Shown: piece by piece, positions 2,244 through 34,200 of the stretch
Layout: every line of letters starts with the position of its first letter
Numbering within the stretch: position 1 is the first letter of the stretch
Origin: Zygnema cylindricum
Lineage: Eukaryota; Streptophyta; Zygnematophyceae; Zygnematales; Zygnemataceae
Direction of reading: 5' to 3'
DNA: 64,000 nucleotides
Assembly: GCA_037447655.1 (NCBI GenBank)
Contig: JBBHKE010001884.1
Span: forward strand, 18,644-82,643
Notes under the pieces: model-generated
Told to the model about the DNA's origin: nothing
What the model saw: only the letters and a program-made list of their open reading frames with translations
Databases searched by the model: none
Made by a program: the position numbers and the translations under genes

Positions 2244-2284
2244 GCATGTGGCTCTTCCTCCTTTCTTTTGAAGCAGTGCGACAC

Positions 2285-3851: not shown

Positions 3852-3889
3852 ACCGGCAAATGTTGCCAGTAACCCGCTCCGATACCAAT

Positions 3890-4914: not shown

Positions 4915-7900
4915 GGACTTGTCCAACAACAAGATTACAGGTGCATTGCCAACATCAATTGTCAGCTTGCAATATCTTCAGAATTTGTGAGTTACGTATA
5001 GTAACTTTTTCTGACTCGCCACACTGACTATGCTGTTAAAAATGTCATCTTTCGCAATTTCATTCATATGTATTTTATTTCACTTTTTGTTTTCTTTGGG
5101 AACTGTCATCTAAATTGCCAAAAACATAATACTACAAACAACTGTCTATACCATTTGGATTTTCACATTGGTTGTTATATGTTGGGGCTAAGTAATTAGA
5201 GATTTTTACAATTTGATTATGATCTTTTCCGAGATTCTGGTCTTCTATATAACATAAATGTTGAGAATATTTTACATAATGCAATTTTTTTCCAGCCTTT
5301 TAATACGACATAACGCTTCCATGGTTATATCACGAAATCTTTTCTCAACGATGTTAAACATAAGACCTCTAGAGTTTTTACAAAACAAAAACTCCTAAAA
5401 TCCTCCCTTGCTAATTTTCCTATTTCTGGGTCTATTGTCGGCATGGACTGCTGATTCCTTGGCATACCACTCTAGATTTTATTGATCCTTATCTTCTAAT
5501 TTTTTTTCTGTCATGGTTGTTAGTGTATTTAAAAGTTACGGCCAAATAGTTTTTAGTGTATTAGTGGAGGACCTTCAACATTTATGTTTAACAGAATCGG
5601 ATGGATTTTTTTTTATCGTCTTCTAAAAGCACAAAATTTTGTCATTCTAACTTAACTGCTCTGCGAACATTTTCCTTGCAATTCTGTTTATCTGTTTGTT
5701 ATTAAATCGTCGATTTTCCAGGCAAACTGCCATCCTAATCTTCGAAACAAAGACACAACACATGAAATAACGCTTTTTGGATTTTTGCACTTTATGTTTT
5801 AAGCGGAGGAAAGAGAAACAGAGCAAGTTGCAACTAGATGTTTTTAGGAATTATTCGTATTCTACATCACATAAAAGGTTCTCAAATATGTAAGAAGTTA
5901 TTTTCATTTTTGCAGGGATTTATCTGACAACAAGGTAACAGGTGGATTGCCAACATCGATTGCCAACCTGAAAAATCTTTATGTTTTGTGAGCTACCTAT
6001 ACCGAAATTTTTGTAGTTAGTATATGTTCTACAACTTTCATCTCCTTGCCAGTTAGTGTCTAAAAGCATCATTGCCAGATAATTCTCACAATGTTAGAAG
6101 CTTCACCGTCTATGGTTATCATATTAGAGTAAACTTTTTTTGACTCATCAAAACACACAATGGTATTAAAACTCTTACATTGTGGTTTTTATTCAGATGC
6201 ATTTCATTTCACTGTTTGCTTTCCACGTTTACCTGTGATTCCAATTGTCAAATTTGTGATTCCAATTGTCAAATTTGAAAACAGAGTATATCAAACAGCT
6301 GTATCCACTAACATTATCTTCACATAGGTTTTTTGTGCGGGGGTCAGATAATTAGAGATCTTTCCAATTGGATAAGAATATATTTCGATCTTAAGTGTCT
6401 TCTGCATAACATAAACGATTTTCAACTTTAAAACATGAGATAACGCTTTTATAATTATGTTTTTGAGAACCTTTCTCAACAATGTCAAACATCCGGCATC
6501 TAAACTTGCTTTTATTGAAAATTCCTTTCATTTTGCAGGGACTTGTCCAACAACAAGATTACAGGTGCATTGCCAAAATCAATTGCCAACATGCAAAATC
6601 TTGAGACTTTGTGAGTTACCTTTAGTAACTTTTTCTGACTCATCAGACCACACTGACTATAGTTATATCACGAAAACCGTTCTGAAAAATGTTAGGCATA
6701 ACACCTCTGGATTTTATATAAGACAAATTCTTAAAATCCTCCCTCCCTCCCTCCCTTCCTCTAGATTTTATCTAAAACTCCTTTCATTTTTGCAGGGATT
6801 TGTCCAACAACAAGATTACAGGTGCATTGCCAACATCGATTGCCAACATGCAAAATCTTGAGACTTTGTGAGTTACCTTTAGTAACTTTTTCTGACTCAT
6901 CAGACCACACTGACTATGCTTTTAAAAATGTTTAAAATCTGATCCTTTGCAGTTTCATTCCTATGCATTTTAATTCACTGTTTGTGTTTGTTTTCCATGG
7001 AAACTGTCATCTTAATTGTCAAAACAGTAAATACAGCACTGCAAACAACTGTGTATACTATTTGGATTTTCAAATTAATTGTTATATGCCGGGGTTAGGT
7101 AATTAGAGATGTTTACAATTTGATTAAAATCTTTTCGGAGATTCTGGTCTTTTACATGGCATAAATGTTGAGAATCTTTTACATAATGTAACTTTCAACC
7201 TTTTAATACAATATAACGCTTCCATATTTATGTCACGAAAATTTTCTCAACAATGTTATATATAAGGCCTCTAGATTTGCTTTTACATAAAATTCCTTAC
7301 GTTTTTGCAGGGTTTTGTCTAACAACAAGATTACAGGTGAATTGCCAACATCGTTTGCCAACCTGCAATATCTTGAGAAATTGTGAGTTACCTATACTGA
7401 AGTTTTGAAATTAATATATTTTCCACAACATTCATCGCCATGTTAGTCAGTGCGCAAGAGCGTCATTTCCAAAAACAATATCGCTCTTGAGAGGCTTCAC
7501 CATCTGGTATAATCCCAAAGGAGTGTTTTTATTTTTAATTCATAAGAACAAACGTTGATGTGAAGAATTTGATGCTCTGCATTTTTATTTGTATGCATTT
7601 CCTTTTACTCTTTATTTTCCATATTAACAATCATCCTAATTGTCAAAATAGAAAACGCAGTACTTCAAAGAACTGTATATGCTATTCCGAATTTTACATT
7701 AATTTTTTTATGCGGAGGTCAGATAATTAGAGCTCTTTATGAGCAGATGAGGATCTTCTTTGAGATTATGGGTCTTATGCATACCATCAAAGTTTCCCAA
7801 TATTGTATCATGATATAACGTTTACACAATAAAATTTTCTCAACAATGTTAGATATAAAACATGTATCTTTGTTTTGTCTAAAATTGCTTTCATTTTGTA

Positions 7901-7973
7901 GGTATTTGTCGAACAACACAATTACGGGTAAATTGCCAACATGGATTGCAAACCTGAAAAATCTTCAAACATT
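4915..7973 (+). other. Block of six 72-bp LRR exons (one repeat per exon)
   Basis: Each exon is exactly 72 bp and begins with the third base of a Leu codon, so each junction falls inside the first Leu of a repeat. Each encodes one 24-residue plant-type LRR of the form LxLSNNxITGxLPxSIxxLxxL. Examples are LDLSNNKITGALPTSI (exons at 4915 and 6796) and LYLSNNTITGKLPTWI (7902). A seventh exon of 72 bp (17550-17621, LDLSYNRLVGSIPTSV) and a degenerate repeat in exon 18543-18913 complete the solenoid. One LRR per phase-2 exon is the classic plant LRR gene structure. The exons at 6539 and 6796 are nearly identical and share their following intron sequence. Confidence 0.92.
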
Positions 7974-10900
7974 GTGAGTTTTCTATGTTCAGTTCGCGAA
8001 CAGACTTCTATAGGTTTCACCCATGGCGGTATGTCTTTGTCCGATTGAACAACAATACTTGAGATTCAAAGCTTGTCCTAGCATTTGCTTTTATTTTATA
8101 AGGAAAATTTGGCATTTATCTTGAGTATGCTCGTCGAAATGTCATGTCACTCTTTGGCCGACACTTGGGTACCTAATTTGTAATTTTTCCATGAGTAGAT
8201 CAGAAGGTCAATTCAATTTGGAAGTTATTTCATCAATTTTTGGTGTATTCGGTCAATGTCCAGCTCTGGTGTTAACCTATATTTTTGGGGATACTGAATG
8301 AACATTGTTGTTAGGTTATTCGACATTGTATCACCTGAAACTGCCACGTTGAAAATGTTATCTACATAAGTCATACTCTTTACTAGTGTTGTGTATCAAG
8401 GACCTTTTGCCGATATTCGATATATATCGAATTTCAGGTACCCGATAATAATCAAAATTTCGCGATATATCGCCAATATATGGTATCGCCGATATATCGA
8501 GGCATTAAAAAAAAAATGAAAATTTTCACAGGTCGACAAAGTCACGTGCCTTCAGAGAAGGTGACAGTTAATTTTTTGCCGAAAAGAAATACGATTTTTT
8601 CCTGAAAGTCAGCAAAGTGAAGGAGATCTTTGAGGTACATTGACACGGTACACTTGGGAAATACACGTACATAATACGCAAGTACGGATTCCTATACGAA
8701 AATGGTCGGTTCTAAGATTTTAGAGATTTGATCGTCAACTTACAAGGAACCACTCAAATCAAAACACGTATGTAAAAACTTGTTTACAGAAGATACGCGA
8801 TGTTAACCAAGGCCTCTGTAATATATAAATATAAATTTTGCTGTCCGTACTATTACAGAGACCTCATGTAACCATACCCCAAATAAGTAATTATATGAAT
8901 TACAAAATTTGTACTTTTTTGTCGGTTACATTTTGGGGCGTCTACCTTAAAGTCACGGAACGAAAATCACGTCGTACGTGGCGTATCAGACAATTTGTTT
9001 TTTTTGCAAATGACATTATATTTGAATATAAAATATAAAAAATTAAAAAATACTATATATCGCGATGATTAATGTTGGTCTCGGTACGATATATCGAGGA
9101 GTCTGCTCGATCGATATTCGAAATATCGAATTTTGAAATTATTGCGATATGAATTTACCCGATACCCAACACTACTCTTTACTACACGAAGAAAAAAGAA
9201 ACATTTTTCTATATTTTTGATTTAGTCATCATGATCAATGACAAAAGAAAAATTTGGAAGAGCTTGAAATGTTTGTTATTCAGACCACAGGTGACTTATT
9301 CGAAATAGCTAAGGAAAAAGAGTGACCATATTTAGAGTAGGAGCATTTTTGATGAAGTAAAAATGCATATTGAATTGGTATGAAAGCCTGATCATACAGC
9401 ACCCAGTCACTCGCTTTTATGTAAGTTCCATCCCTCGGCAAGGTAGAGTTCATAAATACCTATTTGTAACTCTTTTGTTCAAAATGATACCGTGATAACT
9501 TTTCAAACACTAAATAGAGTGGGCCCATCCTAAAGGATATTTCACTTTCTCCTTTGTTGTGTGCCCTATTCAACCTTATCCTGATGTAGCCATTGGATTC
9601 TCAAAGATGAGATGTATAAGCGTTCTTTTTTGTGCTGATTCATTCACTTGTTTTAAATGTTGCCTAAACGCTAAAGTCTAGAATGGACCTTTGGAAACTA
9701 CAAAATTTGCATTTGTTTTTTCCCGAATACATGCATACATTCGCAAAAATAGGAGAACTGTACCAATTTGGAAATATAGATGTCTAGTTGTTACGATTCA
9801 TTGAAAGAATAGTAAGCGCACGGAATCGGCTCGATTCACAAGTGTACTTTCTAGAATGTATCGCGAAAGAATTTTTTTTTAACGATTTCGATAAAGTTCT
9901 ATTATGTTTGTTTCGCGATACTTTTGTCGTTTCGTTTCGCGTCTAGAATTATCGTACGTCTGGTTTAGGACGATAGTACTTTAGTTTTGAGTAGTTTTTT
10001 CATTTTCATTTGTCGTTTTACAATGTTTTGAGTCCTTAGTAAAAATTAGAGTGTTTTAGTCTAATCTGCGAACAGGTGGCAAATTTCTAGAGGTTTCATG
10101 GCGGCGCACGCTCATACGTGCCGCGCCATGGCTAATGTGTATATAAGGGACACTATGAAATAGTGAAGGACAATCAATTGAGGAAATATACATTGAGGAA
10201 TAGAAGAGATAAAAAAGATAGAAGAGAAATTGTAATTTCTGTTATTTATTAATGTCAAAAACTTTCCAAAATTTCTTTGCAATGTTGATTCACTGACTTG
10301 TAATCTGAATGCTTTTGCTGCCAAAATTATTTTTTAGTGAAATTTGAATTTATTATCAATTCTTTCATTTGGTATCAGAGTGGGTAGAGGGCCATTGTAG
10401 TGTCACCTTCACTCATGGGGGGAAAGAACAAAAAAAAGCCCATTTTCACTCCCTCTTCTTCCGCTGCCTTTGTCGCGAATCTTTGCGATAATCTATCTCC
10501 GGAGAGCATCAGGACGAGCCTTAATGAGACAAGGGTCCTCGGACGAGCCTTAATGAGACAAGGGTCCTGTCCATTGCCATGCCGTACCTAGACCATACAG
10601 AAAGTACCACGAGACCAGTACCTTCTTGTACGGTACAGTCCTGTGATTGGTGCTCTACAACAGGATAGAAGGGTTTTAGAGAGAGGTTTAGGACTTAGTG
10701 TTTTTGTAGGTAGCCGCCTCTCTCCAAAGTGATTGTGTACAAATAGGCATTTTTGCCTCTTGATAACTAATCGCTTGGTTGGGCGTTTTGAGTGATTTCT
10801 TTCCATGTTAACTCAAAGGATTCCACACTACATAGGGGTGAAGTCATCTAGAAATTCTCTCTGCCAGGGAGGCAGCGGTTCCAAGAGCAAGTGAGCCATT

Positions 10901-13900
10901 GAAAATTCACTAGAGGCTTCATATACAAAAGGGAATTCTGTGATCCAATATTTTTTAGTGAGATTTGAATTTGTTATCGATCCTTTCATTTGGTATTGGA
11001 GTGGGTAGAGGGCCATTGTAGTGTCACCTTCACTCATGGGGGAAAAGAACAAAAAGAAGCCCATTTTCAATCTCTCTTCTTCCGCTGCCTTTGTCGCGAA
11101 TCTTTGCGATAATCTGCGGACTCTTGAGGATCCTCCCAAAAGAGGAAGAGTTCACCTTTCCTGGAGCCGCATTTGAGTCATCATTCCCCCACGGATTCAT
11201 TTGATCAAAATAGAGGTGTCGGTGGCTAGATGTCTCACAATCAATTGCGAGAGAATTTTGTGGATTCCATGCATCGGATCGATGAGAAGTTTTCTGCCGT
11301 GGATAGGAGGTTTGATGAACTAGCTCATGGTGAGCCGGATCTCGCTCCGGATGGAGGAGATTGAGATTCCAATGATGATGATGAGGGGGCGAAGAAAGGG
11401 AAAGATAAGAAGGGGAAACAAATGCTAGATGATGATTTCGATTTAGAGGAAGATAGTTAAGGAGTGGAGATGTTTCAAATGCCCGGCAAGACCTTTGTCT
11501 TCAATGGATCGAATTACCCTTCGTGGAAGAAGTACCTTCGAGCTCAATTTATTTTGAGGGGACTTTGGAAAGTTGTGAGATTTTGAGGGAACTTTGGAAT
11601 GTTGTGAATGGAGAGGAAAAAATTCTGGTTGAAGATGCAAAGGCTAGTCATTTGTGGAAGCGAAAGAATCACAAGGCCATTACCAGATTGATGCAAACGT
11701 GTTTGGTGTCTATGCATGACCATTTCCTCACGCATAGCACTGCACACGGATGCTAGAAGGCGCTGGAATCCCAATTCGAGAGGGGAATCCAATACAAGGG
11801 GCAATACATGTTCTCCGATTCATGCAATCACGGATGCTGGAAGGCGCTGGAATCCCAATTCGAGAGGGGAATCCAAAACAAGGGGCAATACATGTTCTCC
11901 GATTCATGCAATTCAAAACGAAATTTAATAAATCTACTGACTAGGCCGTGAAAAGGTTAAATATTATTGTGGAGCAGCTTCTTAACTATAGGAGAATTAT
12001 CAATGAGGAGGACAAAGTATCCGGATTTTTGAATGCATTACCGCATAAGTGTATCCACCTCAAGGAGATTTTACTCACGAGAAAGAATAATACTTACAAA
12101 TTTATTGTAAACTATTTGAAGTTGGCGGAGAGTAATCGTGTTAGTTCTTTGAAAGGCTCCTTAGACTTGAGATTGTTAAATGTGATTGCTCCCCAAATCG
12201 CGAATTTGAATTATTTCCAAGGAAGAGGGGGTGGAAAAGGAGGAAGATTGAGAGGTCGTAGAAAATGGCTTGACAGGGGTGGAAATCTGAAAGCTCGGTC
12301 TGTCCTGAATGACAATAACAATGTCTTGTGTTTTCGTTGCAAACGGCCTGACCATATTTTGGCTTCTTGTCCGGGAAAAGAAAGAGAATGCTTCAATTTT
12401 AGAAAATTAGGCCACACGAGCCAACAATGTTACTCTAAATTTAGTAGCAGAGGAGGAAGAGGCTGTCGCAATTTTGGTGGATGCAGCCGCCGGCGTCACA
12501 TTAGTCGTGGTTGTGGACGATATAGCGGCCATGGCGACAGCCATGGAAATTTCATCGACTTGGGAAATTTCGAAAGAGGCAAAGGTGAACAGACGTTCAC
12601 TTGTCTTTACCTCACAGTTCATTCACTAAGTGAATCGAATGACACACGCGAAAAAGAGTGGATAATTGACACGGGAGCGTCTCATCAGGTGTGTACGGAC
12701 GCTACACTTTTTTGATGACATGCGTTCACTTACCGCTTCAAAAGTTATTATGGTCTCAAGTGGACAAACTATTACGGTTGGTAGTGGATACTTTTCGATT
12801 GAATCTATCCACGGGGGATCTTCAAGGAACCGAATCGTTATCAGAGGCGCGTTTATTGAAAGTCCATAACATTTTGGACGGTTCAGTAAATTAACGAAGC
12901 GTTCCTCAAATTAACGTAGTCGCTTTAGGCGATTGAGCGATTGGAATATATTGCGCCCACGGCAAATTAATCGGCGAAGGTGAAGTCACAAGGTCTGTGC
13001 ACAGCCGACTTCTATGGAGTACTAAGGAAGAATGCTTACTCCACGGGCATTTTAAATCAAATCTCGGAATTAAAGGGAGATTTGACGTTATGACATCACC
13101 GGATGTGTCATACATCCGAGGGTAATTCGAGGAGAATCATAAAAACGGCATGCGTAAAGGGATTAGTTGCTACAAGCGAAAAAGTAAATGGATGCGATAG
13201 ATGTAGTGAAAAACGACAAAATCGGAAACCACATCCAAAGAAAGATGTGAAATTTCGGGCTCAACATTCTTTGGAGCTTGTCTATGTCAATTTTTGTGGA
13301 CAAATTAAGCCGGAGAGCATTAGAGGAAATCGATACATCATGGTAATCGTTAATGATTATGCGATTTTTTCGTGGGTAGGATAACTAATGAGGAAATCTG
13401 ATGCTATAAAAACTTTTATCGGGAGGCATTGCTGAAAGACAATGTGAACGGAAGTTGAAAGCCATTCATTCGGATAATGGAAGAGAGTTTATCACATTTG
13501 AGGGTATTGTAAGGAAAAAATAATTGCTTAAAAATTTACATCACCTTATTCTTCGTAATCGAATGGAGTAGCCAAAAAGAAGAATAAAGCTTTACAAAAA
13601 ATGGTGAGGGCGATAGTGCATTCAGTTGTTCAAAATATCACATTATGGGGAGATGTCAGCCTCACTGCCAATTGCATTTCTAATCAAAGGCTTACCACGT
13701 CTTCCGGTGACAAGACGCCAATTGAGTTACTTTATTGGCGAAAACTGACTTTCCATCATCTCCAAATTTTGGGATGTCGTGCTACGGTGTATGTGGATCA
13801 AGTGAAAAGGAAAGGGAAATTTGCAGTGAGTTGGCCCAGACTTTTCTTGGGCTATAGTACGAAAGGAAATCTTTACCGTGTATTTGATCCGGTTCGTCGC

Positions 13901-16900
13901 ATTGTGGAAGAATCTCGCAATGTTAATTTTCACGAAGATCTGAATTGGTTATTGAAAATCGGTAAAATTAAAGAAGAACTTGATTTCTATAAGGTGGACG
14001 ATGTTGCCAATTTCTCAAACATTGAGGATTTGGATTCGGATGAGGAGTCGGAATTATTAGCATCGTTAAGAAAGGGAAATCAAATGTTGATCCACGTTCG
14101 GAGAAATTAGACATTGATATCGATGTTTGAAGTAATGCAAGCCGAAATTCCAAAATTTCGACGGAAAGTCAAATATCTTGAGTTCAAAATCGAGTTTGGC
14201 AAATGTCAACAAATATGAGCAAAATGTGGAACAAATCTCGCTCTTAAGACGAAGTACTCGAAAGAATAGAGGAAGAAAATCGAATCGACTTTCTTATGAC
14301 AAAATTGGTGGAGATAATTCTTATTCCCATTATTTTGTTTCCAATGCTAAAGAGACGGAATTCCTTTTACAGAAAATAATGTGGGAGAATCTGGCCGGCA
14401 ATCCACAATCATACACCGAGGCCAGAAACTCGTGTGATTGGGAATCGAAGTGTACGCTGGCATGGGAGGAGTATTTGTGGAAAACCTGATATTTGAGGAG
14501 GAAGCATTATCGCAAGGGAAAAAAAAAATGACGCGAAATGGGTCTTCAAAACTAAAATTGGTGCATCGGGTGAAGCAGTTAAGTACAAGGCTAGGCTTGT
14601 ATTTAAAGGATTTCAGCAAAGAGAGGAGGTAAACTACACGGAGCCATATTCCCTTGTAAAATTGGACTCTCTAAGGATGATTATGGCGATTGCCGCCTTG
14701 AAAAAGCACGTTCATCAAATAGACGCCGAGACAATGTTTTTGAATGGAGACTTAGAAGAAGAGGTTTATATGAAAGTACTTGAGGGCGTGATGTCACGGG
14801 AAGGTACGGTAAGGCACCTTTGCAAATCACTCTACGGATTGAAGCTGGCGCCCCGCACTTGGTATCTACGCTTACATAAAGTCCTTTTGGACTTTGATTT
14901 CAAGCGTACAATTTCAGATTTTGGAATTTACGTACATGAAAAGACTAGGATTGTACTAAATTATATTTTCATCGAGCGTCAATGATTTCTTGATAACGTC
15001 ATATGTTTTTGAACGGATACGCAAATTGAAAGCATACATGTGTCAACATTTCAAAGATACAAATCTTGGCGAAGTAAAATACATCTTAGGGATTGAAATG
15101 ATTCGTCATGCGAACAGGGACATAAAGTTAATTCAGGCGCAATGTTGTGAGGAGGTCTTAACGCGGTTTTCTATGCTTGACTCAACCAATTTTAACGCCT
15201 ATGGACGCGAAAACGCAATTGTAAAAGTTAGAGGAAAAAGCGACGATTGATGTACCGTATTGCGAAGCCATTAGGAGTTTAATGAACTTAAGTGTTGGTA
15301 CACAGCTGGATATACGGGCGACAGTTTCAATTGTTAGTCAATATTGCCAAGCGCCCAAGAAATCGCATTAAGCCATCAAACGTATATTTCAATACTTGGC
15401 GGGTACTACAGATATTGGCCTCGTCTTCAAAACAGAAAGTGAATTGTTGGAGTGTGTCAGATATTGCGACGCCGATTAGGGCGGGGATTTCGTTTTGGGA
15501 AAATCCACGTCCGGATACTCATTTGTGTGTGGTGGAGCGACGATCTTGTGGTGTTCGCGTTTTCAACCAACTGTGGCACTATGTTTGACAGAGTTTGAGT
15601 ATCTGGCGTCGTGCCACGCGTGCCAGGCGTCTATATGGATAAAGGAAATGGTTTGTGAACTGGCATTTTCAATTGGATGTTTAAAAAAAGTTACAAATAG
15701 CATGAGTTCAATGGCTCTTGTGAAAAATATCGTTTTTCACAAACGCACTAAACATATAAGGATCCAATGGCATTTCGTACAAGATCTTGTAGCGGCCAAA
15801 GAAGTGGAATTTTTGTATGTATCGACACTTGAAAAAGCTGCCGATATGCTTACCAAGGCAGCGACGTTCGACGTAATTTTAAGAGGAAGATCTAACTTAG
15901 GGTTGTTGTGATGGAGACGATTCTTCAATGGAGAAGGGGAATGTTACGATTCATTGAAAGAATCGTAACCGCGCGGAATCAGCTCGATTTCGCAAGTGTA
16001 CTTTCTATAATGTATCGTGAAAGTACTTTCACTTACAATTTCGATAAGGTTCTATTATGTTTGTTTTGCAACATATTTGTCGTTTCGTTTCGTGCATATT
16101 TGTTCAAATCGCGCGTTTTTTTCAATTTTTCCGATCTTTACGTATTATTCGTGACTTTTGAAAAAATTGTAAAAAAACGCGATGTACTTCCTCTTCGGTA
16201 AACTGAACGGCCAATTGACGGAAACTGTACGGTTTTTTATGGAAATGTACGGAATATGACGAAAAGATACGCTGAACGTATTAGTACTTTCCGCCCGGTA
16301 ATCTGAAAAAAAAAATCACGGATAACGTACAGAATTTTATCGTTCATGTACGGACAATTTCGAAAATAGACGTTGCAGCATCACACTATTTGCGTGTGGG
16401 AAGTTTGAAATGTGTACAAACGCCTTCTTCATTTTTTTTTCAAAGAAGCCGCCATGAAAACTTGAAAGCAAACAGATTGTCTCAATATCCTAGGAGAGCG
16501 TTGTCCGTAACCAGTTGATGTAGATGTTCTGATACCTACATAGAGTGTGATAATTATTTAAATCATTACAATTTTTTATTGCTCATTTAACAAAAAACAC
16601 ACAAACTGCGTTACATGTTCAATTCAATTTTTTTTACATGTACGGAATTGTACGGACAAAAATTCATTAACAGTTTTTACTATTTTTTCAAATCGACCTC
16701 TCCGATTTCTACGTTGCGCGTTTAAATCGTGCGTAAAATGCGATTTGAACAACTATGGTTTTGCGTCTAGAATTTTCGTACGTCTAGTTTAGTACGATAC
16801 TACACCGCGAATTGTAATTAGAGTAATGAAAAGATTAGAGTACAAAAACTAAAAAAAAAAATTAGAGTAATTAACGCTAATTTATGTGATAGAGCTTTTT

Positions 16901-19900
16901 CAACTATGAAGTTCACTCTAATTTATTTAAGTACTCTAATTTGGCACGCTAATATCCTCTACTGTAAATAAGTATTCGTACAGAATTTGGCAAAACGTAC
17001 AGTTTATCGTCACTATGACGTTTGCACTACGCGGTTTGTTAAAACGCAGTTACATGATAACGGCCTGTATTAAATAATTATTTGTACTTTTTTGCTTAAT
17101 AAAGTACAATTTTGCACGGTCGGACACTGTCCGTACTCCACACTATTTGAAACGAACCTATACTAGAATTAAAAACGTTAATTAAACTTTACCTTAAATA
17201 GAATAATGAAAAAAATAGAATCGTTTGCTCTATTTCATGTTATAGAGTCGAAATTTCGAGCGACCGAATTAGAGCAACGATTCGCGGTGTACTTTAGTTT
17301 TGTCTAGTACTTTAGTTTCCACTTGTCGTTTTGCAATGTTTTGAGTCAATGAAAATTAGTGTTATAGTCTAATCTGCAGACAATAGCAGATTTCTAGAGG
17401 TTTCATGGCGGCGCACGCTCACATGTGCCGAGCCATGGCTAGTGTGTTATTTAGCTTTATGGGATTTGCACCTAAAATTCCACCCTATTCCCTGAAGAAA
17501 TTTTCTTAGTAGCAAAAGAAAATAAATGAATCTGGTGGCATGCTTGCAGAGATTTGTCCTACAATCGACTTGTTGGCTCTATACCAACATCTGTTGCCGA
17601 CATTCCATTTCTCTCTGAGCTGTGAGTTATTTCTATTGTGAATGTTTTGGACTTTGTTTGCTTAATGCGTCTAGCGTTGCTAGTTGACAACCCTTTTAAA
17701 ATTTTGCTTGGCTTTAGATCCGTTGTTCATCCTCGGAATAATACCTTGCCAATATAAAACCTGGAAATTCTCATATATTTTCTTATAGAACGTACTTGGT
17801 CTTCGACATCAGTATTTTAGACTGAAAAAGCAGATATAGGATGTATTTTTCGCGTAGGCTACAGAAAACTGGGTTTTAGTGTGACAACTTCGCCAATTGT
17901 ATACAAAAACGATGTTTCACCTTCCATTCCATTTTCAGAACTTTCCTATGAATATCAAAAAACTTAATAAACTTGGAAAAAGAGGCTAGAAAATTGACTC
18001 TATTAGAGAAGGAAATGAAAATGTGTGTGGCTAAGTTGTGAAATGTGACGAGGACTTGCGGTAGAATCCTGCAAAGGAAAAATCACATGTCGCACCTCGA
18101 CAAAGTTGGTCCATTTCCAAACTGGTCCACATTCTGCTAACTCGGTTGTCAGATGTAATAGAAAAATTTCAGCTTTTTTGGGACTTAACTAGAAATAATA
18201 TGAATTATCGGGTCAGTAATTATGGCTTTCTATTAGAAGTAAAAACCTGAAATTTTCCTTTGGTATACTACGTAATAAACAGGCGTATGAATATTGGTTA
18301 TGCTGATGCTACTTTTATACTCTCCTACCCTACCCTGTTTCTAAACTCAAACCTTTTTGTAACAAACGCTATGAAAATTTATTGATGGTTGCATTTGTAC
18401 TTCCTACGACACCTATTTTTGGCATTCGACTACAATGTATTTAACATGGGTAATAATAGGAGTAACAATGCCCAAAACTGGGAAAATATTCAATCTTTCT
18501 AAAACTAAGTTAGGGTTATCACCGTTCAATGGTGTTGTGCAGATATTTAAACGACAACCTTCTGAGTGGTCCACTCTTGCTTCAATTTGAAGTAGACGTT
18601 GGATGGTACGATTTTGAATGGATACTTAACTTCAAAAACAATTTTTTCTCTGGAAATCTTTCTCTCTTTGTCGGTAAAAGCATACTGGATGATTGTACTA
18701 TAATTTCTGGAAATTGTTTCGACTTAAATGCAACTCTTTTGCAAAATTGCACCCAAAGAACTCAGAGGCCCGACTCCGAATGTTCACAATTTTGCGACGC
18801 TCTTCAACCCATGGGAGCATGTGGAGGCCATGGCATCTGCCCCGGATTAAACGGCTCATGCATTTGCGAACCTGGATATGCAGTCGAATTTTTACCGAAC
18901 ACTTGCACTTTTGGTAGGCATTCTGGGTGTCCACCTATCCACACTCTACAAGTACTTTTAGCCTCTCATTTCTAACCCCACTTTTAACCCTTTCTTATGT
19001 CACGGAAATGTAAGCTCATGAACGTCCCAGTGGGAAGGGCAAGGTGCATGTGATGACTCCACATTGTAACAATACCATGGAGATTCTCGTGCAGTCTTCT
19101 TGTGCTTTATTTGTGTACAGTTGTCACAAAAAACAGGTGTATGAAAACCACCTTGTTTCGTAAACAAAACTGAAAATTTCGCCAAACCAAAATTTCAGAG
19201 ACCTGTTCAACCACATATGGCATGCATATTATAGAACCAGTGTTATAGCAGTGTAGTGGGTGTGAGACATTTAAGAGTTGAGAAAAACAATGGAGTCTGA
19301 GGGTAAAAATTGGTTTGAGGTTCAAGAAGGATTTTGAGGGCAATGGATTCTGGGTGTAAAAAATAGTTTGAGATCTAATAATGGTTTGAGTGGAAATAAT
19401 GGCTCTAAAATTAATCTGATATGCTCCAAGCTACGTCTATGCTTGGGGTTATTTATATAAAAAGAGTAACTTCCTTTTCGTTAACAGCAATCAGGGACGA
19501 GTTCTGAAAACTTTCCCGAAATATATATATACTGCTCTTCACTTTCCCAGCCCAACAGTATTGAACACAACCTAAAACCGAATGGAAGTGGTCAATGAGG
19601 CACTTATTATGCAGTGAAGAATTGTAGCTGCTAGGAGCGTGGGCTTTATCTTAACCCATAATATTAAGCTAAATATATTATATTAATATTAAGTAAATGA
19701 ATATGTTGTCTTTATACTTCTGTTATGTTGGAAGCATTACCTCGGTATTGTCATTCGTAAATTGATCATTGTTGAATTTGATTTCAGGTGTCCGTGGACG
19801 TGGGTTAACCACACCTCCTGAAGTGTTATCGCCAAAACTGAATAAGTTTTTCCGCTATGCTAGTGCCGGGTACATATCTTCTATGGACGAAAAGCCGTCA

Positions 19901-22900
19901 TGGCTTGTGGCAACTTCCTGGAATTGGTTAAAGCAGCGAGCAGTTCAAGGCGTTTATGACCAGTGGAACTGCAGTAAGTACCTTTTAGATGTTATACATT
20001 CTAGTAATTTCAATAAAAAAAAAAATCGTTTATCAGCAAATACACGTATTATCAAGGCATACATGTGTTAGCAATGAATGCACGTGTTACAAACATTGTC
20101 TACAATTCATTCGCCTGCATAGAACTGTTGGAGATGCGGATAATAATCCTGAATTTATTTAGAATAGTAAATCCTTCTCAAGGAAAATAATGTATCTGCT
20201 TGGTCTCCAGTAAAGGACAAGAGATAGTGCAAAAGTAATTTATCCACACACTTTCAAATTATTTTGTTTATATTTTTTTCGATAACCCTCCCCGCCCTTC
20301 CGTTCGTAAAGACGGTGCATCTTCAAATGCAACTGGCCAATATCTTTGTGGTTGAATAATTTTAATATTTCTTTGAATCTCCAGGTACATATCAAAATAT
20401 TTGTTTCTCACTGCAAGGGTCGCTATTGTAAAATCTGCTAATATTACCCAAAACTTCCAAGAATAAGCTGAAATAAAACAATAATTGTCATTGAAGTAAA
20501 ACTGAACAATTTGTGCATGATACCGGTCAATTTATGTTATTTGTTAAACATGAAATTCCAAGGTTGCAACAATGGTGGTCTGGTATATTAAAGATTTGGT
20601 ATTGAGACTTTCCAGTGTAAAGACTCAAATACCATCTCGAAAAAAGTTAATCATTGCAAGCCCAAACCTGATTAAAATCCTTTTCTGTATGTTCTTCAGA
20701 CACATGCTGGTTTGTCGCAGCTGCATCGGCAATAGAGAGTGCCTTTTACATTTCCAATGCTGGAAGAACCCCATTGCCTGCAATAGCGATGAATCAAACG
20801 CTCGAATGCTCAAAATTTAACTCAAACTGCAGCAGTGGAGGCTGGCCATCGACTGCGTTTGACTTTGCAACAGCCGATGGCCTCAGCCTATCTGCTAACT
20901 TTATCGGAACATCTAGTTGCACGATGACAAAGGTGAGGAACTTATGGGACATCATGACATTCTCTCTCCCTCACTCTCTCTCTGTCTGTCTCTCTTTCTC
21001 TCTCTCTCTCTCTCTCCTCCCCCCACTCCCCCCTCCCTCTCCCCCGCTTCTATAAAAATGCCTATTTGTCCATGTATGAAATTAGAATCGTGAAGTTGTT
21101 TTACCATTTATAGGCATTGATTTGTGGAAAATTGACTCCTTCCCATTGATTGATGGATTACGTGCAGGATAGCAAATTGTCCATTTTATCCTATGAGAGA
21201 ATCAAAATGAGTGGCTGGCTGGGCCTCTTACTCGCTCTACAGCAGCAGCCGGCAGTGGTGGCCATAGAAGCCAGCGCAGAGAGCTTTGTCAATTATAACC
21301 CTCTACTGGTGAGCACCTTCGCTTCTTTTCATTCTTTGGTCCTTCCCTCCTTCACCCTGAAATCACTTATGCCTTCGTCCTCTACCCCCTACCCCTCTGA
21401 TTAGCTTCTCTCATTTTGCCTCTTCCTCCTATCACCTCTTCATGATTGCTATAATTCAGAGTTTCCTCACACCTTTTTTTCCCTAATTATCATACCATAA
21501 CTTTCCTGTAGTATTGGACGCCCTTAGGAAATGGACCAAGTTTACAAATGAATGGGTTAAAAACTTTCATCTCTCATGTTTTGGTTGCCTGCAGATATTG
21601 AAATAACTAGGTACATGCTTACTAAAGGTATATTTTTAGTAAAACCATTCTTGGTGAAATTTGAGGACAAAATAAACTCACACAGGGCCCACCTTTTTTT
21701 TTTTTTGATAAAGGGTATTTACGATAATGAGACATGCTTTTCCAATGGAGTGAACCATGCGGTGGTGGTCGTCGGCTATGACTTGACGGCCGAAACGCCA
21801 TTTTGGCTGATTCGCAATTCGTGGGGACCACAATGGGGCGATAATGGCTATATGCGCATCAAAATCTCCGGCGGTTATGGAATATGTGGAATCAACACCC
21901 AGCCAGCCTTCATACCCATTATGAACATCAATGGTAAGCCCATTTTGCACCGTAACTTTTTTTGTATCGTTCACGTTTTTTGCTTGTATAAAGGAACCAC
22001 ACTTTATAGGGGAAATGTTCTCAAGTCACTGGTTTTCTTATGTTATGACATGTGTTTTGTCTCTATTTCATGTCACACCGGGTTTACAAAACATTGGTTG
22101 TATGATTCCTTGGATTACCTTTGCAGCCAGTGACCCTTGCAATTTGATGAGCTTTGCTCGAACACAACTTAAAGTGACTATCGGGCCTGGCATGATGAAT
22201 CCATGTGGCAACGGCATATGTATACCAAACAAAAGCAAGTACACATGCCAATGTATGGATAACTTTGTGGCAGTGAACAACACAGATGGAACAGCGACAT
22301 GTGCTCCAGGTAAAATATTTCCATACTTTTCTGTCGCTCTATTGCGCGTAAAAAAGAGGCTTTTAAAATATATCTTTTATAAGAGATTTTAGTTATCCAC
22401 TGTTTAGGTCCATTTAACGAAATAATATCCATTATAGGAAGATCTTCTTAGGTAAGATTCAGTATCAAAAGACGTCCTTCACATCATAAAATTGACAAGA
22501 CCTGGTATAACTCTAGATTTTCTGGTCGGAAAATTGTTTGGTTGGTGTATGGTTTGTTTCTTGTATGTTTGCATTGAGATTATCAAATTCTTCATTAGGC
22601 TGTAGTCTCTCAAAAACCTCTTGAAATTCCAAACATGGGCCCAACCTTTGAGCCCAATCCACCAGGTCACTGCAAAAATGGAAATAACTCACCATAACTT
22701 TTGGAACCACACCTAGAAATGTTTATAGCTTCTTTTAAAAATTGTAGATCTCCCACTAGAACGAAACACACAAATAACCTGTATCAAGTTACACTTTCTG
22801 ACTACGTTATGTGAACATTTTTACACAAGTTCTTTCGGTGAAACGCCTTATGCAAGCGGAAAGAAAGCTAATTTGACCTGTTTTCTGCAGTTTCCCCATG

Positions 22901-25900
22901 CACTTTCACATCCCGGAATCCTTGTGGTATGGGTACGTGCGTGGACTCCAATCAAAGTCCGGGCACCTATACCTGTTTGTGTATCGTCGGATATACACCT
23001 GATGACGTAGACGGCAGTCTCACTTGTGTACCAGGTGGGCTCATCTCATCTTTACATAGCCTGGTAACAGTAAAAATGATGCTCGACACAAAATTCTAAT
23101 ATTGTTAGGACTTGATATCGCGTATGACTGTAAATGGATCTACAGTAAATGGAACCAGCAGAAAATTTAAAAATCTGATGTTTTTTATCTACTTAAAAGT
23201 TATACATTACCTTGATTTTGTCATTTGGTTTAGGGTTCTTTAATAACTTGTATAATGAGTGGAAATAAAAAAGTTATTTACGTTTCTAGAGATATGCTGC
23301 TTAAACACACTGGAGTAGAAATGACCAAATCGACCTGATTGAACTAATGAACCAAGAAACATGCAAGTGTCCCTACAAAGGGATCTCGCTGAACGGTCAA
23401 TAACCCCAATTTCACCGTGCAGTTATGGTAAAATAATTTGAAAAATTACCTATTTTACAATGATATCTTATCAAGAGTTAACCCTGAGTTCATAAATTTC
23501 ATAGGAAAGTAAAGCTATAGTTTAGGGTGGGCATCCTTCTATATAAGTGGCTTGCCGTTTGATAAGGAAAAATCATATCCCTATCTTAATCTTCAGCTTC
23601 GAAAAATTGAGACAGTTGTGAAAGTTTGTGTTTTTACCATATCTCGATTCTGGAAACAACTCATATCCTGTCTCCACCCAGCAAACTACAAACAGACCAC
23701 TAAGGAATTTGATGACTACGTAATGTTATATACTTTTGTTGCAATGGCAGATATAGATGGGTGACTGTAGCAAACTAGGATCACAGAAAGGTCGGGTGTT
23801 GTTTTTGACCCCTTGTTTTTTTTACAGCTATATTTTCTTCAGGTCCGACGTACGTTGTGCCAGCTGGCGGGAACATCTCTTGTTCAACAATCAGCGACGT
23901 TTATGGCATTTTCCTGCAAATTTTTATCGACCAAAATAAAGAGTTACTCAACAATCAGGTCTTGCGCACCGAAAAATACTTTCAATTTATTATGCATAAC
24001 TAATCTTACTCCTTGTCACAATAAATCGGATCTCAAAACATTGTTTCTGTTTTTTACTATAGTACAAGTTTTTTTTCCTGGATTCGAACTTGTATTATGT
24101 TGCATTGGAAAAATTGTTTGGATGCAAGTTTGTTGAACTTATGAGAGGGTGAAAAATTTGTTGAATTTGTAGAATTTGACATGTGATCGGTTACTTCCGA
24201 ATGGCGCCAGCGTGAATGTGACAAATAGCCGAAATTGCGCTGTACTCTATGCTGTGAATGAGGTAAGCATTATACTACACTGGCTTTGCTGAACTCTATA
24301 GCCTGCGGTGGTAAACCAGTTGAGTTAGCCTTATTAGCAATTCGATTTGAAGTCTTATGCAGTCTGAACGAAAAACAGAGGACGAAGTGATAATAAGTGA
24401 GAATAGGAAGATTATAGGAAAAGAATACTACGTGGGAACCATTCAAACACGCTACAGTCATTATTGGTTGGTACATTTGTTTGCAGAGAAATCTTGTTTC
24501 GCGTTTTCCCACAGAATGTACCGTCGACTATTGTTTTGTGCAAAAATTCACTTCTACTGTTGATTCCTTTACTCCAACCAAAATATATTACTGTTCTAGC
24601 AGTCCATCTACATACATGTCCCTATTCCTTGTAATCGAGTCTCTTATCGGGTAATCATACATGCAAGTATTGGAATTCTAACTGCTAATTTACTACTAAA
24701 GGGTTGGTGATATATGGCTTTCACTTGTAAAAACGGTAACCCATAGTAGCTGATTCTAACCAAAAGCTCACATCATTGGCTTGTTGTTTTCTCATTACTT
24801 CATTCTTAAATAACCAATTATACAATTTAGGAACAATACAGTTTAGGACATATGATAGTGATGTATATCGAGGGCAACTTCCCAATATTTGACACGTGGG
24901 TTCTGTTTATCCCTGAACACGCATTTCTGCGTGTTTCCACATCAAGCGCAATATGCACTGCAACTCCCCAAAAAATTCCAAAAATGAATGCATCATAACA
25001 CCTTGTTCATGACTAGCTACTTTTTCCCCTGTAGCGAACATGTCAAGATTTTCCATGTGCGATACACCCTGTATCGCTATTAGGCTGCCAATCGGAAGGA
25101 GAGAATCTTACATCTGTATTGGGATAAAAATTTGTGTTGAGTGGCCGAAATATTTTTTTCGCAGATAGCATTACACACTGGACTTTTTGTACCATAATCT
25201 TACTTAAAATACTTTTGTACTATTTATGTTTTCCCTAACATATATTGTTGTATCGATTAATTATCGCTTGATATTACATCTCAATACGAAGTTCCATTGA
25301 GCTCAATAGGATACGGGAATTGTATTGTATCGTGATACTTATCAAGATTTGATGCAAATGTACAGCATTGAAATGTGTTTTCAGAGTACGCACAAATATT
25401 CAGTTCATACTTACAAGCAACAATTTTTATTGTCTATGACCTTGTTGATTTTGGTTGTTTTTCGTGTTGTGGAAAACACCAATTCAATTTCGGCATCACT
25501 ATGGCGTGGAGAATTTTAGACGTAAAAATCACGTTTCATAATGTGTGTTACAAAATAGAAGTAGAAATGTTACATAATGTTTGGAAAACTACAGATAAAT
25601 ACCTTTTTAACCTTACATTTCATGTGCGCTTCAAGTATAGCCACATCCACATCCGTTTTAAACCAATTGTTTAATAAACCTCAGTTTGGTCTGTGGGAAA
25701 GTGTTTGAGCATTAAATATCCGTTAATTATTTGCATTTTACATCAGACATTGCTCCTGAACGGCCTGGGTTTTTTTATTTTTTTTACAGGGTGACACTTG
25801 TGCTCTCATTAGAAATATGTTCAACATTTCAGACGACCCTGATAGCGATATCTCAGATTTAGAGACCCTAAATCCGAATCTGAATTGTTCGAACCTTCAG

Positions 25901-26943
25901 CCTTTTCAACAGGTGCGTAAAAACACGAACCTTCTTTCAATTCCACAAACCTTGCCAACTACACTGCCCATTGTTGTTAGAGTTAACAAAACTAAACTGG
26001 TCGCGAATTTATGTGGCCGAAAATCATAAAATATTGTTAACAACGATACTTGCGGGAGTGGCTTACAAACTGCCACGTCTCCTTGCACTAAATCAGTATA
26101 GTATACTCTAAGTTTGCATTAACATTGCTAAATCGTTAACGCTAGTATCGATGGCAGCGTACTATTACGATCCGTTCTACCCCTTTTTTCCTCACACTAT
26201 TGGCCTAACCTTCATTTTTGAAATTTTTCTCAACAACACTAAAAATTTAATTTAACCTTTCAGCTTTAAAACTCAGAAAAAAATGCCTTATTAGAAATCA
26301 GCTGGTGTATGATTTGTGGGAAATATTGCAGATATGTGTCCAAGAAGGGGAACCAACATATCCTGGACCTTGTACTCTGCCGTACAATGTCCAGCAAGGC
26401 GAAACGTGTTCTACGATTATCCAAAAATTTATGAACGGAAGCGCAACAGATTTCTATGCTTTGAATCCCGGTATTTATTGTGGCCGTCTGCAATCCTCAT
26501 CAACTGCCGAGGCTGATTTCAGTCAAGAGGTGATGCCAATTTTTCACAGCCTGTAATTCCTTTGGATGTTATTTTCTATTCATTCATGTGCTCTAAATTG
26601 TTTACAAACAAGACTCCTGAAGCTCAATCGATTATTTTGGTTTGTACGCTTTTTGTTAGTTTTACTGTTTGGTTTTCATCGTTTTGAGTCCTTGGCGTTG
26701 CATTCTCTTTTCATCCAGGTTTGTCTTCAAGCTTTGGATTTGGGCAGTAGAATGGCAAACTGCAAAGGAAAGCCAGCTGCCCTGGGTGCTAATGATAACT
26801 GTCCGTCTTTGAAAGAAAAGCATTTTAAAACAGAATCTTTCAAAGCCCTGAACGGTTCTCCATGTAGGGAAAGCTTCCTCAAAAAAATCCGTGAATACGC
26901 AAAAGGAAAGAAACTGACACCAAATATATGTGTCCCAAAATAA
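4915..26943 (+). CDS. LRR - EGF - papain-like peptidase - EGF2 - LysM multidomain protein (5' end not in view)
   Basis: Nineteen exons joined at GT-AG sites keep one frame for 910 residues to TAA at 26941-26943. Exons: 4915-4986, 5916-5987, 6539-6610, 6796-6867, 7311-7382, 7902-7973, 17550-17621, 18543-18913, 19788-19973, 20700-20932, 21168-21308, 21714-21933, 22127-22309, 22891-23034, 23843-23958, 24173-24262, 25790-25912, 26332-26529, 26719-26943. Residues 1 to about 240 are LRRs, about 262-290 EGF-like, about 330-550 a C1A peptidase (oxyanion Gln 350, Cys 356, His 493, Asn 513 of the visible part), about 555-660 two EGF-like modules, 661-910 LysM repeats. There is no C-terminal membrane helix, so a secreted or wall-bound protein is likely. 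The first exon found starts mid-codon, so 5' exons (signal peptide, more LRRs) are missing or lie left of copia element A. No peptidase propeptide (I29) is visible. The exon model is hand-built; frame continuity over 18 junctions is strong support. The biological role is not known to me. Confidence 0.85.
8385..9173. mobile_element. MULE-like non-autonomous DNA transposon, 789 bp
   Basis: A perfect 10-bp direct repeat, ACTCTTTACT, flanks the element (8375-8384 and 9174-9183). The ends are inverted: AGTGTTGTGTATC at the left, and the complement of the right end reads AGTGTTGGGTATCGGG. Both ends carry clusters of GATATATCG-type palindromes (about 8415-8500 and 9055-9150). No transposase frame is present. 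A 9-11 bp duplication points to the Mutator superfamily. It lies in the long intron after the sixth LRR exon. Confidence 0.85.
9789..10367 (+). repeat. 5' LTR of copia B
   Basis: The LTR is 579 bp and runs from TGTTACG to TTCTTTCA. A TATA-like TATATAAGG lies at about 10139 and would place the start of R soon after. Position 10361 onward leads into the primer site. This LTR is uninterrupted and so serves as the empty-site control for the MITE insertions in the 3' LTR. Confidence 0.88.
10340..11110 (+). repeat. Duplicated leader with a second primer-site-like sequence
   Basis: The stretch 10340-10498 (LTR end, primer site and the start of the leader) recurs at about 10950-11110 with modest divergence, including TTTGGTATTGGAGTGGG in place of the primer site. 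Between them, a 28-bp unit (GGACGAGCCTTAATGAGACA...) is repeated twice at 10512-10568. This is probably a rearrangement during reverse transcription or later unequal recombination. Confidence 0.8.
11471..12716 (+). pseudogene. copia B gag and start of protease
   Basis: Gag-like frames run from MFQMPGKTFVFNGSNYPSWK (about 11471) through the region after 11948 (VKRLNIIVEQL...FLNALPHK). Two zinc knuckles follow: CFRCKRPDHILASC (His present, Gly lost) and CFNFRKLGHTSQQC (first-pair Cys lost). The protease active site IIDTGASHQVC lies at about 12660-12690, then a stop at 12714. An in-frame 84-bp tandem duplication lies at 11747-11914. Confidence 0.82.
13080..14110 (+). pseudogene. copia B integrase, frameshifted
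   Basis: MCHTSEGNSRRI and CDRCSEKRQNRKPHP match the HHCC region of copia A. The core reads LVYVNFCGQ (first catalytic Asp now Asn), HSDNGREF (second Asp kept) and SNGVAKKKNK (Glu to Lys). Stops and frameshifts occur near 13382, 13520 and 13600. The C-terminal part (TVYVDQVKRKGKFAVSW...GYSTKGNLYRVFDP) is one frame. The copy is inactive. Confidence 0.85.
14178..15911 (+). pseudogene. copia B reverse transcriptase and RNase H, frameshifted
   Basis: The RT motifs are VKLDSLRMIMAIAA, HQIDAETMFLNGDLEEEV and KSLYGLKLAPRTWY. The catalytic YVDD box is degraded near 14975-15000. DTNLGEVKYILGIEMI continues RT. RNase H follows in several frames to the stop at about 15910, where AADMLTKAATFDVILRGR is the usual copia C-terminus. 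The polypurine tract and 3' LTR come directly after. Confidence 0.87.
16095..16757. mobile_element. hAT-like MITE inside the 3' LTR
   Basis: The ends are inverted: CATATTTGTTCAAATCGC at the left and the complement of GCGATTTGAACAACTATG at the right. The flanking 8-mers are GTTTCGTG and GTTTTGCG. The undisturbed 5' LTR reads GTTTCGCG at this place, so each flank differs from the original by one C-to-T change at a CpG. An 8-bp duplication with these ends fits the hAT superfamily. No coding capacity. Confidence 0.78.
16803..17289. mobile_element. Tc1/mariner-type (Stowaway-like) MITE inside the 3' LTR
   Basis: The element is flanked by TA on both sides (16801-16802 and 17290-17291). The 5' LTR has a single TA at the matching point. 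The termini are CACCGCGAATTGTAATTAGA and the complement of CAACGATTCGCGGTG. The right part matches the reverse complement of the copy at 59368 (shared interior AAATTTCGAGCGACCGAATTAGAG). Confidence 0.85.
18543..18913 (+). other. Exon with last LRRs, Cys-rich cap and first EGF-like module
   Basis: The exon opens with LYLNDNLLSGPLL (LRR-like), then NFKNNFFSGNLSLF, a second degenerate repeat. A Cys cluster follows (NCTQRTQRPDSECSQFC) that resembles the C-terminal LRR cap of plant LRR receptors, where an N-C-x(n)-QRP pattern is common. It ends with CGGHGICPGLNGSCICEPGY, an EGF-like six-Cys pattern. This exon links the LRR solenoid to the peptidase. Confidence 0.82.
19788..21933 (+). other. Papain-like (C1A) cysteine peptidase module
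   Basis: Four exons encode the catalytic domain. VYDQWNCNTCWFVAAASAIE carries the oxyanion Gln and nucleophile Cys (papain: NQGSCGSCW). GVNHAVVVVGYD carries the catalytic His, and WLIRNSWGPQWGDNGYMRI the catalytic Asn. The spacings (Gln to Cys 6, Cys to His 137, His to Asn 20) fit C1A. QQPAVVAIEASAESFVNY matches the strand before the His. Hydrolysis of peptide bonds is therefore plausible. The usual I29 inhibitory propeptide is absent between the EGF-like module and the catalytic domain; only about 40 residues separate them. Confidence 0.93.
22127..23034 (+). other. Two EGF-like modules
   Basis: Two exons of similar phase encode Cys-rich modules: NPCGNGICIPNKSKYTCQC and NPCGMGTCVDSNQSPGTYTC, each followed by a second half ending in TCAP or TCVP. 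The Cys-x-x-G-x-Cys...YxCxC pattern is EGF-like. Both exons end in CCAG before the donor, so they could have arisen by exon duplication. They act as rigid spacers between the peptidase and the LysM region. Confidence 0.85.
23843..26943 (+). other. LysM region (three clear repeats plus a degenerate fourth)
   Basis: Five exons encode LysM modules, a fold that binds GlcNAc-containing glycans (chitin, peptidoglycan, Nod factors). Repeat 1: YVVPAGGNISCSTISDVYG ... LTCDRLLPNG. Repeat 2 spans an intron: LYAVNEGDTCALI then LETLNPNLNCSNLQPFQQ. Repeat 3: PYNVQQGETCSTIIQKF then FYALNPGIYC. A last part (NDNCPSLKEKHF ... LTPNICVPK, then stop) looks like a decayed fourth. Cys residues flank the repeats, as in plant LysM proteins. 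No kinase, membrane helix or clear GPI signal follows. Confidence 0.87.
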
Positions 26944-34013: not shown

Positions 34014-34200
34014 CTGAATTAAAAAAACAAAACCATAATGAACACAATCAGCAAAGAAGTAGCGCCGTTTATCTTTGTTTTGACATTCACATATAAGCAC
34101 GTATAGAAAAACCTCTTTCCTGATATTTACATTAGTGATTTTTTTTATTTAATAATTGTAGGAAATCATTTGAATAAAACACCTGTGAACAAATTTAGTC

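What the first reader, a model, noticed from the sequence alone, without database searches (positions are those of the whole stretch)
4915..26943. One gene joins LRRs, a papain-like peptidase, EGF modules and LysM repeats
Nineteen exons keep a single frame for 910 residues through LRR, EGF, C1A peptidase (Gln, Cys, His, Asn all present with papain-like spacing), EGF-EGF and LysM. LysM modules bind chitin- or peptidoglycan-type glycans in known families, and plant LRRs bind peptides or proteins. A secreted protease carrying both would be a self-contained microbe- or wall-targeting enzyme. I recall LysM combined with cysteine peptidases in some algae and lower plants, but not this LRR-headed order. 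The exon junctions are seen; the function is inference.
Basis: partly seen in the sequence, partly recalled or inferred. Interest (0 to 1): 0.92.

Follow-up and report, generated by a model that had tools for sequence, protein, structure and literature searches.

The report
LRR-headed, LysM-tailed algal papain protease
A gene, probably from a pond alga related to land plants, encodes what looks like a secreted protein-cutting enzyme joined to a plant-receptor-type recognition arm and to sugar-binding modules; related algae share this combination, and we came across no paper that describes it.

Summary
Nineteen exons (4915-26943), all GT-AG, keep one frame for 910 residues to a stop: about eight LRRs, EGF, a papain-type (C1A) domain with Gln, Cys, His and Asn in place, two EGFs, then LysM units. 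A transcript ORF from an unnamed eukaryote (P0001, 1041 aa) is colinear at 38% through every module; P0029 matches the last 480 residues at 70%. So it is very probably one gene, though no same-species transcript over the LRR-C1A junction was found. Its 5' end lies left of the window. I count 43 relatives: 36 named Closterium, none named as a land plant; 20 of 43 have LRRs, 23 of 43 a legume-lectin domain. Seven of 39 readable relatives have Ser for the catalytic Cys. No I29 propeptide was found. C1A+LysM in green algae is published; I did not see the LRR-headed form in the capped listings of ten paper searches. Best reading: a secreted, glycan-anchored protease whose LRR arm selects partners; the function is inferred. 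New variant of a known kind.

The parts
4915..4986 (+). LRR exon 1 seen (72 nt, phase 2-2); gene continues to the left outside the window
   Evidence: GT-AG, frame; LRR_8/LRR_1
5916..5987 (+). LRR exon 2 (72 nt)
6539..6610 (+). LRR exon 3 (72 nt), 96% identical to exon 4
6796..6867 (+). LRR exon 4 (72 nt)
7311..7382 (+). LRR exon 5 (72 nt)
7902..7973 (+). LRR exon 6 (72 nt)
9788..17450 (+). Copia-type retroelement inside the intron between LRR exons 6 and 7 (limits approximate, 3' LTR broken); not part of the protein
   Evidence: LTR-like direct repeats 9789-9939/15942-16092 and 9976-10144/17289-17450; gag-pol-like ORFs between 11945 and 15911 read by eye, no domain search
17550..17621 (+). 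LRR exon 7 (72 nt)
18543..18913 (+). Exon 8: last LRR, LRR C-terminal region and first EGF-like module in one continuous exon
   Evidence: junction motif C-x2-FC...CxGxGxC shared with relatives
19788..19973 (+). Exon 9: linker and start of C1A domain, catalytic Gln350 at 19961-19963
20700..20932 (+). Exon 10: C1A, catalytic Cys356 at 20705-20707
21168..21308 (+). Exon 11: C1A
21714..21933 (+). Exon 12: C1A, catalytic His493 (21756-21758) and Asn513 (21816-21818); AAG acceptor
22127..22309 (+). Exon 13: EGF-like module 2
22891..23034 (+). Exon 14: EGF-like module 3
23843..23958 (+). Exon 15: LysM-like unit 1 (alternative start 23828)
24173..24262 (+). Exon 16: end of LysM-like unit 1, start of LysM 2
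25790..25912 (+). Exon 17: LysM 2
   Evidence: PF01476 at residues 725-773
26332..26529 (+). Exon 18: end of LysM 2, LysM 3
26719..26943 (+). Exon 19: degenerate LysM-like unit 4 and stop

Best explanation
One nuclear gene, probably of a zygnematophyte alga, encodes a secreted modular cysteine protease: (signal peptide and LRR cap, expected outside the window) - LRR arm - EGF - C1A papain-type catalytic domain - EGF - EGF - LysM units. Likely working: the protein is exported to the wall or mucilage; the LysM tail holds it on GlcNAc-containing glycans (chitin- or peptidoglycan-type); the LRR arm, of the plant receptor-ectodomain kind, binds a peptide or protein and so brings substrate, or a regulator, to the catalytic domain. 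Shown: gene structure, modules, catalytic residues, family. Inferred: the organism, secretion (from relatives), protease activity, both binding functions, biological target.
For: Single frame, GT-AG throughout; Pfam domains; papain residues and alignment to solved plant papains such as ervatamin C and ficin. P0001, a transcript ORF labelled complete, is colinear at 38% over window residues 1-891 and has a hydrophobic start and LRRNT_2. P0029 is 70% identical over residues 431-910; at the exon junctions it covers it differs in length only at 14/15, by 3 residues. LysM 2 resembles LysM of chitinase A structures (5bum, E 4.7e-05). The window protein has no hydrophobic 19-residue stretch. The model of P0001 matches LRR receptor ectodomains (FLS2, MIK2) and papain/cathepsin folds. 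36 of 43 relatives are named Closterium.
Against: No transcript from this species was found across the LRR-EGF-C1A junction; the search for one returned none. No I29 propeptide, normally used for folding and latency of papains, was found in the window protein or P0001, so activation is unexplained. Seven of 39 readable relatives have Ser for the catalytic Cys, so activity is not kept by the whole family. Four of the 15 sequences scanned (P0001, P0002, P0023, P0033) have a hydrophobic stretch inside the tail, none in the last 60 residues; a membrane link there is not excluded. No binding or activity data. The LRR-protease geometry is not resolved (pTM 0.56). Species not identified.
Confidence: 0.6

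Rival explanations
1. Same protein, but its work is on the alga's own wall, mucilage or mating proteins (turnover, release of daughter cells or gametes), not on microbes; LysM and LRR only position it.
For: Many relatives in one algal genus, several per strain: 36 of 43 named Closterium. The Penium secretome contains cysteine proteases and an LRR-extensin (passages seen).
Against: LysM suggests chitin- or peptidoglycan-type ligands; zygnematophyte walls are not known for these (recalled).
Confidence: 0.25
2. LRR and papain parts form a receptor-bait in one chain: pathogen protease inhibitors bind the papain part and the LRR part senses or reports this, as tomato Cf-2 does with the separate protease Rcr3.
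For: Rcr3/Cf-2 precedent (abstract). LRR relatives with Ser for the catalytic Cys (P0002, P0003) would fit baits. LRR units in the window are tandem duplicates.
Against: No kinase and no membrane helix in the window protein, so a partner would be needed. The window copy has all catalytic residues. No evidence of inhibitors or signalling.
Confidence: 0.1
3. Two or three neighbouring genes were joined by wrong splicing or by mis-assembly.
For: A 9.6-kb intron with a retroelement splits the LRR exons; 5' end missing; no same-species cDNA.
Against: Last LRR and first EGF share exon 8; P0001 and P0035 (transcript ORFs) and Closterium models have LRR before C1A in one protein, 20 of 43 relatives; 19 of the 20 LRR relatives keep the LRR-EGF junction motif.
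Confidence: 0.04
4. A decaying copy: 5' part cut off or silenced by retroelements.
For: One Copia element in an intron and another just left of the first exon seen; weak AAG acceptor at exon 12; last LysM unit degenerate.
Against: No stop or frameshift in 910 codons, all introns GT-AG, catalytic and cysteine positions kept.
Confidence: 0.07

Closest known systems
LRR + C1A + LysM / legume-lectin proteins of Closterium and transcriptomes (unnamed or hypothetical; P0001, P0012, P0018, P0033, P0035 and others)
   Same: Same module order and, in 19 of 20 with LRRs, the junction motif; P0001 38% colinear over residues 1-891
   Different: 23 of 43 relatives carry a legume-lectin domain, absent in the window; in the three where I placed it (P0002, P0016, P0018) it lies before C1A. 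Some have Ser for the catalytic Cys
C1A+LysM proteins of green algae and charophytes (Chlamydomonas and others; PMC2728734 and PMC6362431, passages seen)
   Same: Papain-type peptidase joined to LysM
   Different: LRR head not mentioned in the passages seen
Plant papain-like proteases (ervatamin, ficin, vignain type)
   Same: Catalytic domain, Q-C-H-N
   Different: P0046-P0053 carry an I29 propeptide (PF08246); this family shows none and adds LRR, EGF, LysM
Plant LRR receptor ectodomains (FLS2, MIK2) and LRR receptor proteins
   Same: LRR type, and LRRNT cap in P0001
   Different: No kinase and no membrane helix in the window protein; a catalytic domain follows the LRR
Tomato Cf-2 with Rcr3 (PMC7468133, abstract)
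   Same: An LRR protein and a secreted papain-type protease work together
   Different: Two separate proteins there; one chain here. Functional likeness only

Membership tests
Peptidase family C1A (papain) | Peptidase_C1 domain above curated cut-off | tested here: met
   137.9 bits vs 20.7
Peptidase family C1A (papain) | Catalytic Gln, Cys, His, Asn in order | tested here: met
   Q350 C356 H493 N513
Peptidase family C1A (papain) | I29 inhibitor propeptide (usual in plant papains; recalled that not all C1A have it) | tested here: not met
   No PF08246 in the window protein or P0001, nor in the precomputed domains of the 43 relatives
Peptidase family C1A (papain) | Thiol-dependent proteolysis | not testable with these tools
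   needs protein
LysM proteins | LysM domain above cut-off | tested here: met
   44.7 bits vs 20.9, two stretches
LysM proteins | GlcNAc-glycan binding | not testable with these tools
   similarity to chitinase A LysM only
Plant extracellular LRR proteins (RLK/RLP type) | 24-residue LRRs | tested here: met
   seven 72-nt exons, LRR_8 5.6e-52
Plant extracellular LRR proteins (RLK/RLP type) | LRRNT cap and signal peptide | tested here: inconclusive
   outside the window; LRRNT_2 and a hydrophobic start in P0001
Plant extracellular LRR proteins (RLK/RLP type) | Transmembrane helix (RLP) or kinase (RLK) | tested here: not met
   no kinase in Pfam, no hydrophobic 19-mer in the window protein, whose C-terminus is complete
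LRR-C1A-EGF-LysM/lectin algal family (grouped in this work) | Colinear LRR-EGF-C1A-EGF-EGF-LysM and LRR-EGF junction motif | tested here: met

The most novel reading that the evidence does not exclude
Zygnematophyte algae carry an expanded, unnamed family of extracellular LRR-papain fusions with differing glycan-binding modules (LysM, legume lectin), including members with Ser in place of the catalytic Cys. [quoted passage not shown]
Probability: 0.12. Interest if true: 0.85.

Novelty: new variant of a known kind. Interest (0 to 1): 0.6.

Why it matters
[quoted passage not shown] A secreted family that joins receptor-type LRRs, a papain-type catalytic (or Ser-substituted) domain and glycan-binding modules would be a ready system to ask how early streptophytes recognised microbes or wall fragments outside the cell, and whether the protease-LRR pairing used in tomato immunity has a fused analogue. 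It also shows papain-type domains without a detected I29 propeptide, so latency must be handled otherwise.

Tried and rejected
Separate genes: rejected because exon 8 joins LRR and EGF and relatives are colinear. Land-plant or fern origin (my first thought from the Copia-rich, intron-rich sequence): dropped after the relatives proved mostly algal. A third protein search for a same-species 5' transcript (window residues 60-445, words from 174-445) found nothing at E 0.001 among 2148 candidates. Searching the window's own genome never worked: the machine was busy. The retroelement's target-site duplication could not be established, as its 3' LTR is broken. Gain versus loss of LRR, lectin and the Cys/Ser change cannot be told: the fewest changes on the quick tree are 11, 6 and 3, some LRR 'losses' may be short gene models, and the tree warns of long branches meeting.

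Papers: ten searches; two searches were on other questions. One search found no paper. Listings were capped in five of them (20 of 409 papers, 15 of 358, 15 of 168, 10 of 37, 8 of 19), so papers may have been missed; subscription papers are not held and supplements could not be read. In titles, abstract starts and the passages that I opened I saw no LRR+C1A+LysM protein. Passages that bore on nothing: PMC7289718, PMC11289646, PMC10834447 and PMC9915684.

Counting notes: the family of 43 is P0001-P0025 and P0028-P0045, chosen by me (27 hits, E 0.001; 55 hits, E 1e-10). P0026 and P0027 and P0046-P0082 were left out as generic C1A. For the Cys/Ser count 4 of 43 were left out (P0021, P0029 and P0032 have no residue there; P0006 starts inside the site and reads Ser), leaving 32 Cys and 7 Ser of 39; P0028 also has Glu for Gln and P0043 a gap at His. 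For the LRR and lectin changes P0006, P0026, P0029 and P0032 were left out. Both family searches scored only the 7996 and 7995 candidates sharing most words, so absence of land-plant relatives is not proven.

Full report
Observation. I rebuilt the gene exon by exon. After boundary corrections all 18 introns are GT-AG and phases agree at all junctions. The frame runs 910 residues to TAA at 26941-26943. The seven first exons are each 72 nt, phase 2 to 2, one LRR each. Exon 8 (18543-18913) holds the last LRR, the end of the LRR solenoid and the first EGF-like module without any splice between them. Pfam finds LRR_8 (5.6e-52), Peptidase_C1 (6.8e-40) and LysM (1.3e-11) above their cut-offs; the EGF models match weakly, below their cut-offs. 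Gln350, Cys356, His493 and Asn513 align with the papain residues. The catalytic part aligns with solved plant papains such as ervatamin C (E 4.6e-28).

What is missing. The first exon in the window is an internal LRR exon. To its left lies a Copia element on the minus strand (integrase in 969-2309). Aligned to the relative P0001, window residue 1 meets P0001 residue 105, which suggests that a signal peptide, an LRRNT cap and about one LRR lie outside the window. The 9576-nt intron between LRR exons 6 and 7 contains another Copia-type element (LTR-like repeats; gag-pol-like ORFs read by eye).

One gene. P0001 is a transcript ORF of 1041 residues, labelled complete by its source, from an unnamed eukaryote. 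It is colinear with the window protein at 38% over residues 1-891, through LRR, EGF, C1A, EGF-EGF and LysM. P0035, another transcript ORF labelled complete, has LRRs before the C1A domain and covers 95% of the C1A-to-LysM query at 37%. P0029 (source lgn, contig of 1664 nt) matches residues 431-910 at 70%; from junction 11/12 to 18/19 it has gaps only at 14/15 (3 residues) and inside the C-terminal unit. At 14/15 an upstream acceptor with a better polypyrimidine tract (exon start 23828) would add five residues. A search aimed at a same-species transcript over the LRR-EGF-C1A junction found none.

Family. Two protein searches gave 43 relatives that I count as family (P0001-P0025, P0028-P0045). 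36 of 43 are named Closterium, from several strains. Of the other seven, two have identifiers that I recall as Mesotaenium (P0006) and Spirogloea (P0030), and five bear no species. None is named as a land plant, but the searches scored only the best word-sharing candidates. By the sources' precomputed Pfam domains 20 of 43 have LRRs, 23 of 43 a legume-lectin domain and 4 of 43 LRR with C1A and LysM (P0001, P0012, P0018, P0033); P0035 is a fifth by alignment. Where I placed it (P0002, P0016, P0018) the lectin domain sits before the C1A domain. A motif at the LRR-EGF junction (Cx2FC...CxGxGxC, with S allowed for the first G) occurs in 25 of 43 and in 19 of the 20 with LRRs, P0034 lacking it; the window has it at residue 248. 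This points to one origin of the LRR-EGF-C1A join.

Catalytic state. In 39 relatives with a readable site, 32 have Cys and 7 have Ser (P0002, P0003, P0009, P0013, P0015, P0017, P0028), at least three changes on a quick tree (the tree carries long-branch warnings). Some LRR members (P0002, P0003) may thus be non-proteolytic. The window copy has Cys. No I29 propeptide is detected in the window protein, in P0001 or in the precomputed domains of the 43. A short linker stands before the catalytic domain; it holds FRYAS exactly in 6 of the 12 members printed and a related form in the other six.

Tail and arm. LysM 2 resembles the LysM domains of chitinase A structures (5bum, E 4.7e-05; 4pxv, E 0.0018). 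A model of P0001 (mean pLDDT 78.6, pTM 0.56, 32 sequences) shows an LRR solenoid, a papain fold and, in the tail, strand-helix-helix-strand runs that I read as four LysM units; the arrangement of the domains is not reliable. Its best matches in the PDB are LRR ectodomains of FLS2 and MIK2, with procathepsin and papain-type enzymes from rank 14 on. By hydropathy the window protein has no membrane-helix-like stretch. Of 15 sequences scanned, P0001, P0035, P0030 and P0031 start with a hydrophobic, signal-like stretch; P0001, P0002, P0023 and P0033 also have one inside the tail; none has one in its last 60 residues.

LRR growth. Exons 1 to 6 and parts of their introns are tandem copies: 4461-5031 and 6055-6660 are 84% identical, 6510-6660 and 6766-6917 are 95%. 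The arm appears to lengthen by exon-unit duplication.

Function. Established knowledge of the modules gives: LysM, GlcNAc-glycan binding; plant LRR, peptide or protein binding; C1A, proteolysis. The most economical mechanism is a secreted protease held on a glycan by its tail, with the LRR arm choosing the substrate or a regulator. Whether the glycan is microbial or the alga's own is open. The Cf-2/Rcr3 pair (abstract of PMC7468133) suggests the bolder reading that the papain part is bait and the LRR part its guard in one chain; nothing here tests it.

Known or new. PMC2728734 (passages) reports peptidase_C1+LysM in Chlamydomonas and the loss of peptidase+LysM in angiosperms. PMC6362431 (passages) reports C1A with LysM, and EGF with lectin domains, in algae and early plants, with C1A-lectin combinations not kept in vascular plants. 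PMC11096116 (passages) counts 209 Pfam combinations unique to Zygnematophyceae and 26 legume-lectin architectures without naming this one in the passages seen. Ten paper searches (two on other questions, five with capped lists) showed me no paper that describes the LRR-headed form; supplements were not readable. I rate it a new variant of a known kind, with related sequences already in databases under no functional name.

Noticed in passing
window 4461-7986: LRR exons with parts of their introns are tandem copies of each other, some 95% identical: an LRR arm expanding by exon-unit duplication.
   Followed up: partly
window 1-4465 and 9788-17450: Two Copia-type elements, one left of the first LRR exon (minus strand) and one in the intron between LRR exons 6 and 7 (plus strand); limits approximate.
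   Followed up: partly
window 29402-34148, minus strand: Pieces of a receptor-like kinase (PF07714 in 31898-32215 and 33759-34148) convergent with the protease gene, with long CT/GA-rich tracts between 32 and 36 kb.
   Followed up: no
window 57877-58263 minus; 62251-62676 plus: A glycosyltransferase family 8-like exon (below Pfam cut-off) and a GAF-domain ORF.
   Followed up: no
window 33306-33378: ARAGORN calls a tRNA with a stop anticodon; probably false.
   Followed up: no
relatives P0002, P0003, P0009, P0013, P0015, P0017, P0028: Ser replaces the catalytic Cys in seven algal relatives, P0002 and P0003 among them with LRR and lectin domains: possible pseudo-proteases.
   Followed up: partly
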